A DNA stretch of 64,000 nt from Paracoccaceae bacterium (GTDB lineage Bacteria > Pseudomonadota > Alphaproteobacteria > Rhodobacterales > Rhodobacteraceae). The number at the start of each line of letters is the position of its first letter. The first letter of the stretch is position 1. Below, in pieces: positions 21,592 to 29,945 of the stretch. The stretch covers positions 1-64,000 of the forward strand of contig JAGXGW010000067.1 of NCBI GenBank assembly GCA_024636555.1, written 5' to 3'. The position numbers and the translations under genes are program-made. The notes beneath the pieces were generated by a model, which was given only the letters and a program-made list of their open reading frames with translations, was not told the origin of the DNA and ran no database searches.

Positions 21592-21630
21592 CTTGACGAA
21601 ATTGCTCAAGCACCTTAGAACGTTTCTAAA
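21592..21630 (+). promoter_or_regulatory. iscR-suf promoter with two superposed iron-type operators
   Basis: A sigma-70-like promoter is TTGACG (21593-21598), 17 bases, TAGAAC (21616-21621). The -35 lies in the dyad CTTGA-N9-TCAAG (21592-21610), which fits the TGA-N9-TCA iron box of RirA/IscR type. The -10 lies in CTTAGAA-CGT-TTCTAAA (21614-21630), one base off the Irr 'ICE' inverted repeat. This is the only obvious promoter for the iscR-suf operon. Assignment is by consensus comparison. Confidence 0.7.
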
Positions 21631-21710: not shown

Positions 21711-22184
21711 ATGAAACTTAGCACCAAGGGCCGATATGCGATGGTCGCACTGGCCGATATCGCGCTGCAACCGGTGGGAACACTGGTAACGCTGGGGGAG
21801 ATTTCCAAGCGGCAGAATGTGTCCTTGCCCTATCTGGAGCAGTTGTTCGTCAAGCTGCGTCGGGCCGGATTGGTCGACTCGGTGCGCGGCCCCGGTGGTG
21901 GCTACAGGCTGGCGCGCCCGGCCAGCGAGATCCGTGTGGTCGAGGTGCTGGGAGCGGTGGACGAGACCGTCGATGCGATGCATCGCGGCGAAGGCGCCAG
22001 CGGGGCCGTCTCGGGCAGTCGCGCGCAATCGGTGACAAACCGGCTGTGGGAAGGACTGAGCGCGCAGGTCTATGTCTATCTGCACCAGACAAGGCTGTCG
22101 GATGTGGTGCGCAACGATCTGGCCCCGTGTCCGGCGGTGCCGTCGCTGTTTTCCATGCCCGTGGTGGATGAGGCGGCGGGCTGA
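21711..22184 (+). CDS. iscR: Rrf2-family regulator IscR (cysteine-poor form)
   Basis: This Rrf2-type winged-helix repressor/activator controls Fe-S cluster assembly genes. The N-terminus MKLSTKGRYAMVALADIALQ and helix-turn-helix EISKRQNVSLPYLEQLFVKL with the wing SVRGPGGGYRLARP are typical. The segment that holds three cluster-binding cysteines in E. coli IscR reads VDAMHRGEGASGAVSGSRAQ here and has none. The only cysteine in the 157 aa is in LAPCPAV near the C-terminus. This agrees with the unusual single-cysteine ligation described for Rhodobacter IscR. The ATG at 21711 is the family start; the ORF track over-extends to 21630. It heads the suf operon. Confidence 0.9.
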   Translation: MKLSTKGRYAMVALADIALQPVGTLVTLGEISKRQNVSLPYLEQLFVKLRRAGLVDSVRGPGGGYRLARPASEIRVVEVLGAVDETVDAMHRGEGASGAVSGSRAQSVTNRLWEGLSAQVYVYLHQTRLSDVVRNDLAPCPAVPSLFSMPVVDEAAG

Positions 22185-22217
22185 TTTACGTATTTACGGC
22201 AAGGTAAAGGGGTGCTT

Positions 22218-23258
22218 GTGAGAGCCTATCTGGATCATAACGCGACAACGCCGCTGCGCCCCGAGGCGCGGGCGGCGATGGTGTGCGCGATGGACAGCCT
22301 TGGCAATCCATCCTCGGCCCATGCCGAAGGGCGCGCGGCCAAGTCGCTGCTGGAGACGGCGCGGGCGCAGGTGGCGGCGGCTCTGGGAGCCGAGGGCGCG
22401 GATGTGATCTTTACCTCCGGCGCGACGGAGGCTGCGGCTTTGGCGCTGGCGGGCAGGGGCCTGCACGGTGCGGCCGTCGAGCACGAGGCGGTGTCCGCTT
22501 GGGTCGCGTGCGATCTGGCGGTGGATGGTCAGGGCCGCGTCACGGTGCCTGATCCGGGCCGGAGCACACTGCAACTGGCCAATTCGGAAACCGGCGTGAT
22601 CCAGACCTTGCCCGAGGGGCTTGCCGTCTCCGACATGACACAGGCGTTCGGCAAGCTGCCGCTGGCCTTCAACTGGTCGGGCTGCACGATGGCGCTGGTC
22701 TCGGCGCACAAGCTGGGCGGCCCCAAGGGGATCGGTGCGCTGATCGTGAAGCGCGGCACCGATCTGGCGGCGCAACTGCGCGGTGGCGGGCAGGAACAGG
22801 GACGGCGCGCGGGCACCGAGAACATCATCGGGATCGCCGGTTTCGGCGCTGCGGCAGAGGCTGCGGCGCGCGATTTGGCCAATGGTGTCTGGGCGCGGGT
22901 TGCGGAACTTAGAAATATTCTAGAAAAGACCATTGAGGCTGAGGCCGCAGGGACTATTTTTATAGGACAGGGCGCGGAACGTTTGCCGAATACCAGTTGT
23001 TTTGCCACGCCCGGCTGGAAGAACGAGACGCAGGTGATGCAGATGGATCTGGCAGGTTTCGCCATCTCCGCAGGCTCGGCCTGCTCCAGCGGCAAACTGC
23101 GCGCAAGCCCTGTGCTGAGCGCGATGGGATACGGGGAAGATGTGGCGAGCGGTGCGATCCGCGTGTCGCTCTCGCCCCTGACGACGACAGACGAGGTGAT
23201 GCGCTTTGCCGAGACATGGCTGGCCAAACACCGCAGATTTGCCGCGCGAGCGGCCTAG
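22218..23258 (+). CDS. Cysteine desulfurase, IscS/NifS-like (class I)
   Basis: This PLP enzyme takes sulfur from cysteine as a persulfide for Fe-S clusters. The sequence YLDHNATTPLRPEAR near the N-terminus, the PLP lysine in VSAHKLGGPKGIGALIV and the flexible catalytic-cysteine loop SAGSACSSGKLR mark a class I enzyme, unlike the class II SufS later in the operon. At 346 aa it is somewhat shorter than E. coli IscS and has a short C-terminus. The GTG at 22218 is preferred because it gives MRAYLDHN with AAAGGGG just upstream. Codons 231-248 are unusually AT-rich and contain an Irr-box-like palindrome. Confidence 0.92.
   Translation: MRAYLDHNATTPLRPEARAAMVCAMDSLGNPSSAHAEGRAAKSLLETARAQVAAALGAEGADVIFTSGATEAAALALAGRGLHGAAVEHEAVSAWVACDLAVDGQGRVTVPDPGRSTLQLANSETGVIQTLPEGLAVSDMTQAFGKLPLAFNWSGCTMALVSAHKLGGPKGIGALIVKRGTDLAAQLRGGGQEQGRRAGTENIIGIAGFGAAAEAAARDLANGVWARVAELRNILEKTIEAEAAGTIFIGQGAERLPNTSCFATPGWKNETQVMQMDLAGFAISAGSACSSGKLRASPVLSAMGYGEDVASGAIRVSLSPLTTTDEVMRFAETWLAKHRRFAARAA
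22908..22924 (+). promoter_or_regulatory. Irr/ICE-like palindrome inside the desulfurase gene
   Basis: CTTAGAA-ATA-TTCTAGA has the same 7-3-7 architecture as the operator in front of iscR, two bases off the TTTAGAA-N3-TTCTAAA consensus. It is written with rare codons (CTT AGA AAT ATT CTA GAA) in a gene otherwise rich in GC-ending codons. It lies about 400 bases before sufB. Its role is inferred. Confidence 0.4.
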
Positions 23259-23315
23259 ACAGACAGACGCGAAGCCAAGACGCAAACCAAGACGGCGCGA
23301 ACAGGAGTAATGGGC

Positions 23316-24836
<1,521 letters not shown>

Positions 24837-24963: not shown

Positions 24964-25554
24964 ATGAGCCAGACCCTGACGCGGCCTGAATTGACCCTGC
25001 CGGAAGCCGAGGCGGGCGTGCTGCGCGCGGCCTATGCGGCGGCGGATGTGATCCTTGAATACGGCTCCGGCGGGTCTACCGTGATGGCCGCCGAGCTTGG
25101 CAAGCGCGTGATGTCTGTCGAGAGCGATGCGGATTGGGCGCAGATGATGCGCGACTGGTTCAACGCGAATCCACCCTCGGGCAAGGTCAGGGTGCTGTGG
25201 TCCGATATCGGCCCGACAAAAGAATGGGGCCATCCTGTCGACGAGACCAAATGGAAGCACTTCGCCCGCTATCCCCTTGAAGTCTGGGATGATCCGGCGT
25301 TTGAACATCCCGATGTGGTTCTGGTGGACGGACGGTTCCGCATGGGATGCGCGCTGGCCACGGCCTTCCGGATCAGCCGCCCCGTCACGCTTTATTACGA
25401 CGATTATGCCAACCGCGCGCGCCACCACAAGATCGAAAGCTTTCTGGGTGCGCCCGCAGAGATAACTGGGCGCATGGCGCGCTTTGACCTGACACCGATG
25501 CCTGTGCCGGCCAATAGGCTGCTGCAGGTGATCCAGATGATGACAAGACCCTGA
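24964..25554 (+). CDS. Class I SAM-methyltransferase-like protein embedded in the suf operon
   Basis: The protein has 196 aa. The motif VILEYGSGGSTVMAAELGKRVMSVESD has the shape of a class I methyltransferase motif I with the acidic end of the second strand. Later, DVVLVDGRFRMGCALATAF resembles the motif II region. Catalytic residues for a specific substrate cannot be identified and the fold could be used without methyl transfer. It lies between sufB and sufC on the same strand, a position I associate with Rhodobacterales suf loci, so a link to Fe-S assembly is possible but unproven. Confidence 0.75.
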   Translation: MSQTLTRPELTLPEAEAGVLRAAYAAADVILEYGSGGSTVMAAELGKRVMSVESDADWAQMMRDWFNANPPSGKVRVLWSDIGPTKEWGHPVDETKWKHFARYPLEVWDDPAFEHPDVVLVDGRFRMGCALATAFRISRPVTLYYDDYANRARHHKIESFLGAPAEITGRMARFDLTPMPVPANRLLQVIQMMTRP

Positions 25555-25592: not shown

Positions 25593-26354
25593 ATGTTGGA
25601 TATCAAGAACCTGCACGTGAAACTCGAGGAAGAGGACAAGGTCATTCTGAAGGGCGTCGACCTCAAGATCGAACCGGGCAGCGTGCATGCGATCATGGGG
25701 CCGAACGGCTCTGGCAAATCGACCCTGTCCTACGTTCTGTCCGGTCGCGCGGGCTATGAGGTCACAGACGGATCGGTGACGCTGGACGATGTGGACATCC
25801 TCGACATGGAGCCCGAAGAGCGCGCGGCGGCGGGTCTGTTTCTGGCGTTCCAGTATCCGGTCGAGATCCCCGGTGTCGGCAACATGACGTTTCTGCGCAC
25901 AGCGGTGAATGCCCAGCGCAAGGCGCGCGGGCAGGACGAAATGAGTGCGGCGGAATTCCTCAAGGTGATCCGCGAGAAGGCCAAAACCCTGCAGATTGAC
26001 GCCGATATGCTCAAGCGTCCTGTCAATGTGGGCTTTTCCGGCGGCGAGAAGAAACGCAACGAGATCCTCCAGATGGCGATGCTGGAGCCGAAGATGTGCA
26101 TTCTCGACGAGACGGATTCGGGCCTTGATGTGGATGCGATGAAACTGGTCTCCGAAGGGGTGAACGCCCTGCGCGATGCTGGCCGGTCGTTTCTGGTGAT
26201 CACGCATTACCAAAGGCTTCTGGACCATATCAAACCCGATGTCGTGCATATCATGTCCGATGGCCGCCTCATCAAGTCGGGCGGTCCGGAACTGGCGCTC
26301 GAGGTCGAGCAGAACGGTTACGCCGATCTGAAGGCAGATGCGGGAGCGGTATGA
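25593..26354 (+). CDS. sufC: Fe-S cluster assembly ATPase SufC
   Basis: SufC is an ABC-type ATPase that drives conformational change in the SufBC2D scaffold. In 253 aa it has Walker A GPNGSGKST, Q-loop FLAFQYPVEIPG, the signature SGGEKKRNE, Walker B MCILDETDSGLDVDAMK and the switch His in VITHYQRLL. The ORF track starts at 25563, but the ATG at 25593 follows AAAGGA by six bases and gives the family N-terminus MLDIKNLHVKLEE. Its stop overlaps the sufD start. Confidence 0.97.
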   Translation: MLDIKNLHVKLEEEDKVILKGVDLKIEPGSVHAIMGPNGSGKSTLSYVLSGRAGYEVTDGSVTLDDVDILDMEPEERAAAGLFLAFQYPVEIPGVGNMTFLRTAVNAQRKARGQDEMSAAEFLKVIREKAKTLQIDADMLKRPVNVGFSGGEKKRNEILQMAMLEPKMCILDETDSGLDVDAMKLVSEGVNALRDAGRSFLVITHYQRLLDHIKPDVVHIMSDGRLIKSGGPELALEVEQNGYADLKADAGAV

Positions 26355-27649
26355 TGGCGCGGGCTGATCTGAAAAAAGAAAAGCATGAGGCGACTGAGGC
26401 GCGGATCTCCACGCTGAACATGCCACAAGGCGGAACATGGGCGAGCATGGCGCGCAACGAGGCGCTGTCGCGTTTGCGTGGCATGGGTTTGCCCGCCCGG
26501 CGTGACGAATACTGGAAATACACCCGTCCCGATACGCTGATCCAGCAGGATGCACCGGCGGCAGCACTGTTCGACAGTCTGGAACCGGCGGTTTTCGACT
26601 CCGTCGACCGGCTGAAGATCGTTTTCGTCGATGGCGTTTTCGATGCGGCGGCCAGCGATGATCTGTCCCTGTCCGGCGTCGAGATCGATCGGCTGGAAAC
26701 CGCGGCAGCCGCCGATATCCATTGGGCCAAGGATGTTTACGGCCGTCTTGAGGCGCGCGGCCAGACGCCTGTGGCGCGCCCGCTGGCGGCGCTGAACTCG
26801 GCTTATGCCACGGACGGGATCCTGATCCGCGTCACCGGCAAGGCCGCCAAGCCGATCAGCCTGATTTATACCCATAAATCAGAGGCGTCTGATGCGATCC
26901 TGCATCACGTGATCAAGCTGGAAAAAGGTGCCGAACTGACGGTGCTGGAAAACGGTCCTGCCGCCTCGCGCTTCAACAAGGTGATGGAGGTCGAAGTCGC
27001 CGACGGGGCAAAGTTCCACCATATCCGCGCGCAGGGGCGCGACCACGAGCGCCGGGCGGCCACGCATCTGTTCACGCGGCTGGGGTCGGAAAGCCTGTTC
27101 AAATCCTTCACCCTGACCGTGAACGGCGCTTTGACCCGCAACGAGGCGGTCATCGAGTTTAGCGGCGACAATGCCGTGGCCCATATCGCGGGCGCTGCCA
27201 TGGGGGACGGGGCGTTCCATCATGACGACACGGTTTTCATCACCCATGACGCGGTGAATTGCGAAAGCCGTCAGGTCTATAAAAAGGTGCTGCGCAACGG
27301 GGCTGTGGGCGTGTTTCAGGGCAAGATCCTTGTCAAGGAAGGCGCGCAGAAAACCGACGGCTACCAGATCAGTCAGGCCTTGCTGCTCGACGATGACAGC
27401 CAGTTTCTGGCCAAGCCGGAGCTTGAGATCTATGCCGACGATGTGGCCTGTTCGCACGGCTCGACGACCGGCGCGATTGATCAGGACGCCCTTTACTATC
27501 TGCGGTCGCGCGGGGTGACCAAGAAGGAAGCAACCGATCTTCTGGTGCTGTCGTTTATGGCCGAGGCGGTGGAAGAGATCGAGGACGAATCCCTGCGTGA
27601 GGAGATCGTAACCCGGTTGACCGGCTGGCTGGAACGCAGGAGCGGCTGA
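26351..27649 (+). CDS. sufD: Fe-S cluster assembly protein SufD
   Basis: SufD is the partner of SufB in the scaffold heterodimer and is tied to iron entry. It has 432 aa, starts at either of two adjacent ATGs (26351 or 26354) overlapping the sufC stop, and shows LPARRDEYWKYTRPD at the N-terminus, the beta-helix core and the C-terminal ADDVACSHGSTTGAIDQDALYYLRSRG, with the conserved His of SufD. The stop overlaps the start of the following membrane-protein gene by one base. Confidence 0.96.
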   Translation: MMARADLKKEKHEATEARISTLNMPQGGTWASMARNEALSRLRGMGLPARRDEYWKYTRPDTLIQQDAPAAALFDSLEPAVFDSVDRLKIVFVDGVFDAAASDDLSLSGVEIDRLETAAAADIHWAKDVYGRLEARGQTPVARPLAALNSAYATDGILIRVTGKAAKPISLIYTHKSEASDAILHHVIKLEKGAELTVLENGPAASRFNKVMEVEVADGAKFHHIRAQGRDHERRAATHLFTRLGSESLFKSFTLTVNGALTRNEAVIEFSGDNAVAHIAGAAMGDGAFHHDDTVFITHDAVNCESRQVYKKVLRNGAVGVFQGKILVKEGAQKTDGYQISQALLLDDDSQFLAKPELEIYADDVACSHGSTTGAIDQDALYYLRSRGVTKKEATDLLVLSFMAEAVEEIEDESLREEIVTRLTGWLERRSG

Positions 27650-28724: not shown

Positions 28725-29945
28725 ATGTTTGATGTCGAAAAAATCCGCGCCGATTTCCCGATCCTGTCGCGGCAGGTGAACGGTAAGCCGCTGGTTTATC
28801 TGGATAACGGGGCCTCGGCGCAAAAGCCGCAGGTGGTGATTGATGCCATCACCCGCGCCTATAGCCACGAATATGCCAATGTGCACCGGGGCCTGCATTA
28901 CCTGTCCAATCTGGCCACAGACAATTACGAGGCCGTGCGCGGGATCGTCGCACGCTTTCTGGGAGCGGCCAGCGAGGAGGAGATCATCTTCAACTCCGGC
29001 ACCACCGAAGGGATCAACATGGTCGCCTACGGCTGGGCCATGCCACGGATGCAGGCGGGTGACGAGATCATCCTGAGCATCATGGAGCATCACGCCAATA
29101 TCGTGCCGTGGCATTTCCTGCGCGAACGGCAGGGTGTGGTGATCAAATGGGTGGATGTGGACAGCACCGGCGCGCTGGACCCTGCCAAGGTTCTCGCGGC
29201 GATCACCCCGCGCACCAAGCTGATCGCGGTCACGCATGTGTCGAATGTGCTGGGCACCGTCGTGGACGTCAAGGCGATCTGCGACGGCGCACGCGCCAAG
29301 GGCGTGCCGGTACTGGTCGACGGCTCGCAGGCGGCGGTGCATATGCCGGTGAACATGCAGGAGATCGGGTGCGATTTCTACGCGATCACGGGGCACAAGC
29401 TCTACGGTCCGTCCGGTTCTGGCGCGATCTATGTCCGCAAGGAACGTATGGCCGAAATGCGCCCCTTCATCGGCGGCGGTGATATGATCCGCGAGGTGAC
29501 GCGCGACAGCGTCACCTATAACGATCCGCCGATGATGTTCGAGGCGGGCACGCCCGGTATCGTGCAGACCATCGGGTTGGGGGTCGCGCTGGAATATATG
29601 ATGGGTCTGGGGATGGAAAACATCGCCGCCCACGAGAAAGGCCTGCGCGATTATGCCCGCACCCGGCTGGACGGGCTGAACTGGATCTCGGTGCAGGGCA
29701 CCACGCCGAACAAGGCGGCGATCTTCTCGTTCACGATGGACGGGGCCGCGCATGCGCATGATATCTCGACCATTCTGGACAAGAAGGGTGTCGCGGTGCG
29801 CGCGGGCCAGCATTGCGCGGGGCCGCTGATGGAGCATATGGGCCTGAACGCGACCTGCCGCGCCTCGTTCGGGGTGTATAATACCGAGGCCGAGGTGGAT
29901 GTGCTGATCGACGCGCTGGAACTGGCGCATGACCTGTTTGCCTGA
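28725..29945 (+). CDS. sufS: Cysteine desulfurase SufS (class II)
   Basis: SufS provides sulfur to the SufBCD scaffold. In 406 aa it has [35 protein letters not shown], the PLP lysine in [19 protein letters not shown] and the class II active-site loop [18 protein letters not shown], where Cys is the persulfide carrier. No SufE or SufU partner, SufA carrier or SufT/DUF59 gene follows. Instead the operon ends at a strong hairpin and a tRNA, so these partners must be encoded elsewhere. Confidence 0.97.

What the first reader, a model, noticed from the sequence alone, without database searches (positions are those of the whole stretch)
22908..22964. Irr-box-like palindrome and rare-codon patch inside the first desulfurase gene
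CTTAGAA-ATA-TTCTAGA repeats the architecture of the upstream operator within coding sequence. The surrounding codons (AGA, CTA, ATA, ATT, TTT) are strikingly AT-rich for this genome, as if DNA-level constraint overrides codon preference. It lies about 400 bases before sufB and could permit separate iron control or an internal start for sufBCDS.
Basis: partly seen in the sequence, partly recalled or inferred. Interest (0 to 1): 0.55.

Follow-up and report, generated by a model that had tools for sequence, protein, structure and literature searches.

The report
Iron-controlled promoter inside iscS gene
Inside a gene for an iron-sulfur cluster enzyme lies a second, iron-controlled switch for the genes behind it; the same switch was already shown by experiment in Rhodobacter sphaeroides, and here it is found preserved, at the expense of normal codon choice, in most of the bacterial family.

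Summary
CTTAGAA-ATA-TTCTAGA is at 22908-22924. It is one of only four near-perfect Irr boxes in the 3.1-Mb draft genome, and the 57-nt patch is the most AT-rich of the gene, 39% GC against 67%.

In R. sphaeroides the same 16 bases, TTAGAAATATTCTAGA, lie inside iscS about 50 nt upstream of the mapped start of promoter P3, the strongest sense promoter of the isc-suf operon. Irr and IscR both bind the P3 fragment in gel shifts (PMC6956336).

What I add is comparative. The Irr box sits at the same codons in 138 of 170 Rhodobacteraceae iscS genes. The six codon columns with the most unexpected codons all lie in this patch. The box goes with an Asp-to-Asn change, so the DNA signal appears to have shaped the protein. 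All 123 Irr-encoding genomes tested keep an Irr box at the operon; 11 of 14 lacking Irr keep none (not significant after correction for relatedness). In this genus the IscR half of P3 looks weaker. P3 activity here is inferred by homology, not measured.

The parts
22909..22923 (.). Internal Irr box (iron control element) of promoter P3, TTAGAAATATTCTAG
   Evidence: One mismatch from TTAGAANNNTTCTAA; 16-mer 22909-22924 identical to the R. sphaeroides P3 site bound by Irr in gel shift; kept in 138/170 relatives
22933..22938 (+). Putative -35 of P3 (TTGAGG; TTG core 22933-22935)
   Evidence: TTG around -34 reported for R. sphaeroides P3; this 8-nt stretch is the most TTG-rich of 314 in the gene across relatives, 74%
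22955..22960 (+). Putative -10 of P3 (TATTTT)
   Evidence: TATTT kept in 118/129 box-bearing genes; A at -10 reported for R. sphaeroides P3
22952..22966 (.). IscR-type site over the -10/+1 of P3, GACTATTTTTATAGG (family form GAC-N8-TCGG)
   Evidence: Aligns with GACTATTTCTGTCGG of R. sphaeroides, whose fragment is bound by IscR; second half has one changed base here
22966..22966 (+). Predicted transcription start of P3 (plus or minus 2 nt)
   Evidence: Transferred from R. sphaeroides (A at -10) through the codon alignment; not measured
22212..23258 (+). iscS, first cysteine desulfurase, carrying P3 in its coding sequence
   Evidence: Pfam Aminotran_5; gene order as in R. sphaeroides
21615..21629 (.). 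Upstream Irr box at the iscR promoter P2, perfect match
   Evidence: aligned position also in relatives
21595..21609 (.). IscR-type site of P2 (GAC-N8-TCAA), overlapping the -35 TTGAC
   Evidence: Consensus ATTCTTGACgaAttcgcTCgG next to the Irr box in 116 relatives; IscR box at -36 to -19 of P2 in R. sphaeroides
21711..22184 (+). iscR (Rrf2 family regulator)
   Evidence: Pfam Rrf2, E 2.8e-35
23310..24836 (+). sufB, first gene downstream of P3
   Evidence: Pfam SUFBD_core
25593..27649 (+). sufC (25593-26354) and sufD (26351-27649)
   Evidence: Pfam ABC_tran and SUFBD_core
28725..29945 (+). sufS, second cysteine desulfurase
   Evidence: Pfam Aminotran_5, E 7e-134

Best explanation
[quoted passage not shown] RNA polymerase starts near 22966, using TTG at 22933-22935 and TATTTT at 22955-22960, and makes an extra transcript of sufB-C-D-S. 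Irr binds the palindrome 22909-22923 just upstream of the -35 and represses under iron depletion; IscR acts at the site over -10/+1. Shown in R. sphaeroides: start site, promoter activity, binding of Irr and IscR to the P3 fragment. Shown here: identity of the Irr site, conservation of its place and spacing, selection on the DNA, and an irr gene in this genome. Inferred: that P3 is active and Irr-controlled in this organism, and that its IscR control is weaker in this genus.
For: Same 16-mer, same gene, Irr bound in vitro, P3 strongest sense promoter in R. sphaeroides (PMC6956336). Box in 138/170 family iscS genes, with the rest at 5 or more mismatches. Six most unexpected codon columns all in the patch. 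No indel between box and -10 in 129 genes. TTG and TATTT kept. irr gene present. All 123 Irr-encoding genomes keep an Irr box at P2 or P3; 11 of 14 without Irr keep none. No unusual RNA fold.
Against: No expression or binding data for this organism. A strict sigma-70 scan finds nothing, though R. sphaeroides promoters are said to share little sequence. The Irr effect on P3 in R. sphaeroides is modest (about 2-fold). The Irr/box association is not significant over phylogenetically independent pairs, and for the internal box alone they are uninformative. The second half of the IscR site is changed here and lost in congeners.
Confidence: 0.92

Rival explanations
1. The box is an Irr operator or roadblock that modulates read-through of the iscR-iscS transcript, and no real promoter is present in this genus.
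For: The -10/IscR part is altered in this genus: the GTC codon of the family is ATA or CCC/CCA. Strict promoter scan negative. Transcription factors bound in coding sequence can hinder elongation in other bacteria (PMC9600179).
Against: TTG at -35 and TATTTT at -10 are both present and conserved with fixed spacing; P3 is a mapped, strong promoter in R. sphaeroides.
Confidence: 0.05
2. The patch is a translational or RNA-level signal: rare codons for ribosome pausing, or an RNA hairpin or processing site.
For: AGA and CTA are among the rarest codons; the palindrome could in principle form a short stem.
Against: Folding is no better than shuffles (z -0.5) and the box does not pair with itself in the minimum-energy structure; no Rfam match; the constraint spells an Irr site, is accompanied by residue changes and tends to be missing where irr is missing.
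Confidence: 0.02
3. Chance palindrome in an AT-rich stretch.
For: None beyond the local AT content.
Against: 0 of 3000 synonymous redraws reach it; conserved in 138/170 genes; two of the four genome sites lie in this one operon.
Confidence: 0.005

Closest known systems
[quoted passage not shown]
   Same: Same gene, same operon order, identical 16-base Irr site, IscR-type site over the -10, TTG near -34, A at -10.
   Different: Second half of the IscR site is changed (TAGG for TCGG). The upstream P2 Irr box is perfect here but has two mismatches in Cereibacter johrii and L. azotoformans, so Irr may act on P2 as well. Activity not measured here.
Irr box / iron control element upstream of iscR (P2), predicted by Rodionov et al. 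2006 (as cited in PMC6956336)
   Same: Same TTAGAA-N3-TTCTAA architecture.
   Different: Lies inside a coding sequence, so one arm base is set by the Glu codon; it sits upstream of the -35, whereas at P2 it overlaps the -10.
IscR site (Iron-Rhodo-box) of Rhodobacteraceae (PMC4618611)
   Same: GAC-N8-TC(GG) found at both P3 (74/129) and P2 in the family.
   Different: Window copy has one changed base in the second half; the other Seohaeicola copies have lost the G of GAC as well.

Membership tests
Irr box (iron control element) | TTAGAA-N3-TTCTAA inverted repeat | tested here: met
   One mismatch; conserved
Irr box (iron control element) | Irr encoded in the same genome | tested here: met
   150-aa protein over the NCBIfam cut-offs for IrrA (200 against 150 bits) and Irr (198 against 170)
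Irr box (iron control element) | Bound by Irr | not testable with these tools
   Shown by gel shift for the R. sphaeroides fragment with the same 16-mer, not for this organism
Promoter P3 of isc-suf | Located within iscS, upstream of sufBCDS | tested here: met
Promoter P3 of isc-suf | TTG near -34 and A at -10 at the aligned place | tested here: met
   TTG 22933-22935 (one base off the Cereibacter codon frame), A 22956
Promoter P3 of isc-suf | Primary transcript start | not testable with these tools
   dRNA-seq exists for R. sphaeroides only
IscR site (Iron-Rhodo-box) | GAC-N8-TCGG over -10/+1 | tested here: inconclusive
   GAC-N8-TAGG in the window; the other Seohaeicola copies have neither GAC nor TCGG

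The most novel reading that the evidence does not exclude
An operator inside a coding gene has been held for much of the depth of a bacterial family, fixing rare codons and also two residues of the enzyme (Asp to Asn, variable to Ile). It forms a partly redundant pair with the upstream Irr box, such that the operon keeps at least one Irr box as long as the cell keeps Irr.
Probability: 0.6. Interest if true: 0.45.

Novelty: already known. Interest (0 to 1): 0.35.

Why it matters
It shows that the internal P3 promoter, known from one laboratory species, is a family-wide feature under DNA-level selection. It explains an otherwise odd rare-codon patch, and makes a testable prediction about how two Irr boxes share control of iron-sulfur cluster assembly. 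It is also a clear case of a regulatory site dictating codons, and probably residues, of an enzyme.

Tried and rejected
RNA hairpin or structured element: no unusual fold, no Rfam match. Strict sigma-70 scan: nothing; not decisive for this group. Chance: rejected. Class-level outgroups: none of 15 readable iscS relatives outside the family has the box, and most read LRD-x-LE, so the box is a family feature. Internal box against Irr on the tree: raw Fisher p = 5e-5, but independent pairs are uninformative, so no strong claim is made. The first codon alignment misread minus-strand loci; redone. Column labels are 3 too high; corrected coordinates are used in this report.

Full report
Observation. 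Against TTAGAANNNTTCTAA it has one mismatch. The 3.11-Mb draft genome has only four sites that good, the reversed control pattern has none, and two of the four are this site and the perfect upstream operator at 21615-21629. A third lies about 63 nt upstream of a nifU-like ORF, which also makes sense for Irr. The patch 22908-22964 is 38.6% GC in a gene averaging 66.9%, and no 57-nt window of the gene is lower. Given the peptide LRNILE and local codon usage, the six codons used have a probability of 1.1e-6. Three thousand synonymous redraws of the gene never produced a site with one mismatch or fewer.

What it is. The operon is iscR-iscS-sufB-x-sufC-sufD-Yip1 genes-sufS, a gene set and order matching the R. 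sphaeroides isc-suf operon. In R. sphaeroides, Nie, Remes and Klug (PMC6956336) found by dRNA-seq a start site, P3, inside iscS, and showed with lacZ fusions that it is the strongest sense promoter. [quoted passage not shown] The window holds the same 16 letters at 22909-22924. Cereibacter johrii (L106), of the same genus as R. sphaeroides, carries both published motifs at the aligned codons. The passages of the paper that I read compare gene order across species but do not discuss how far P3 or its boxes are conserved.

Conservation. I collected 170 distinct iscS genes of the family. At the aligned place 138 have the Irr box with at most 3 mismatches (137 with at most 2) and 32 have none (5 or more mismatches). 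Elsewhere in the same genes the best match never has fewer than 3 mismatches. All four congeners in which the gene was found keep the 18 bases CTT AGA AAT ATT CTA GAA unchanged. Across 160 non-redundant genes, the columns with the most unexpected synonymous codons among 333 are, in corrected coordinates, 22920 (CTA, z 7.8), 22911 (AGA, z 6.3), 22953 (ACT, z 5.4), 22929, 22938 and 22944: the six highest, all in this patch (labels there are 3 too high). In 129 non-redundant box-bearing genes there is no indel between the box and the -10. The 8-nt stretch at the -35 is the most TTG-rich of 314 in the gene (74%, median 1.6%), and TATTT is kept in 118/129. Outside the family, none of 15 readable relatives has the box.

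Effect on the protein. With the box the residues are R-N-I-L (Asn in 123/129, Ile in 122/129). Without it they are R-D-x-L (Asp in 27/31), as in most outgroups. So the operator appears to have set amino acids as well as codons. The next codon, GAA or GAT for an acidic residue, in turn fixes the one imperfect base of the palindrome. The order of events is not shown.

Link to Irr. This genome encodes Irr, with the HPH motif described for R. sphaeroides Irr. In a draw of 299 family genomes, 17 lack a credible Irr. Among genomes with both regions readable, all 123 with Irr have an Irr box (at most 2 mismatches) at P2, P3 or both. Of 14 without Irr, 11 have neither; two of the exceptions are fragmented assemblies (320 and 470 contigs) and one has a decaying box. 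Raw Fisher p is 7e-14, but relatedness matters: on well-supported branches only 6 independent pairs exist, of which about 4 agree and none disagree, which cannot reach significance. For the internal box alone the pairs are uninformative. The Irr-less genomes and low-identity genes were added on purpose, so the table is not a random sample. I treat this as supportive only.

Mechanism. Polymerase starting near 22966 gives extra sufBCDS transcript independent of the iscR promoter. Irr sits just upstream of the -35 and, in R. sphaeroides, represses P3 under iron depletion; IscR represses it under both iron conditions. P2 has the mirror arrangement: IscR site at the -35, Irr box at the -10. In C. 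johrii and L. azotoformans the P2 Irr box has two mismatches (TTAGAACCATTCCAC), which may explain why Irr did not bind P2 in R. sphaeroides. Here the P2 box is perfect, so Irr may act on both. In the window the second half of the P3 IscR site reads TAGG instead of TCGG, and the other Seohaeicola copies have lost both halves, so IscR control of P3 is probably weaker in this genus. These last points are inference.

Identity of the genus. The named best hit in the genome collection, Seohaeicola saemankumensis (L062), lies on a contig with the same length as that of the congener G001 (253862 bases), so the window's genus is taken to be Seohaeicola.

Verdict. Observation confirmed, interpretation supported. 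The element itself is already known from R. sphaeroides; the family-wide conservation, the imprint on the protein and the link to Irr extend it.

Noticed in passing
22914-22919 and aligned codons in relatives: The enzyme residues at the Irr box switch with the DNA site: Asn-Ile with the box, Asp-variable without it; a regulatory site apparently imprinted on a protein.
   Followed up: partly
22952-22966: The IscR-type site of P3 is altered in the window and lost in four congeners, while the Irr box beside it is unchanged.
   Followed up: partly
21615-21629 against L106 and L095: The upstream Irr box at P2 is perfect here but has two mismatches in Cereibacter johrii and L. azotoformans, which may explain why Irr did not bind P2 in R. 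sphaeroides.
   Followed up: partly
L060 1501-1515 (genome contig C37): Another near-perfect Irr box, about 63 nt upstream of a nifU-like ORF: a likely further Irr target.
   Followed up: no
L061 1501-1515 (genome contig C46): A fourth near-perfect Irr box, inside a 211-aa ORF of unknown function; possibly chance.
   Followed up: no
24964-25554: ORF of 196 aa between sufB and sufC with no Pfam match, at the place of the hypothetical gene RSP_0439 of R. sphaeroides; by eye it resembles a methyltransferase-like protein.
   Followed up: no
L031, L036, L037, L051, L130, L152: Lineages that lack the internal Irr box yet keep the ATTTTT -10 / IscR segment downstream: the two parts of P3 are lost separately.
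   Followed up: no
family genomes G020, G023, G029, G088, G113, G115, G128, G135, G161, G178, G182, G187, G208, G209, G218, G220, G252: 17 of 299 family genomes lack a credible Irr: apparently several losses of this regulator, some perhaps only gaps in fragmented assemblies.
   Followed up: partly
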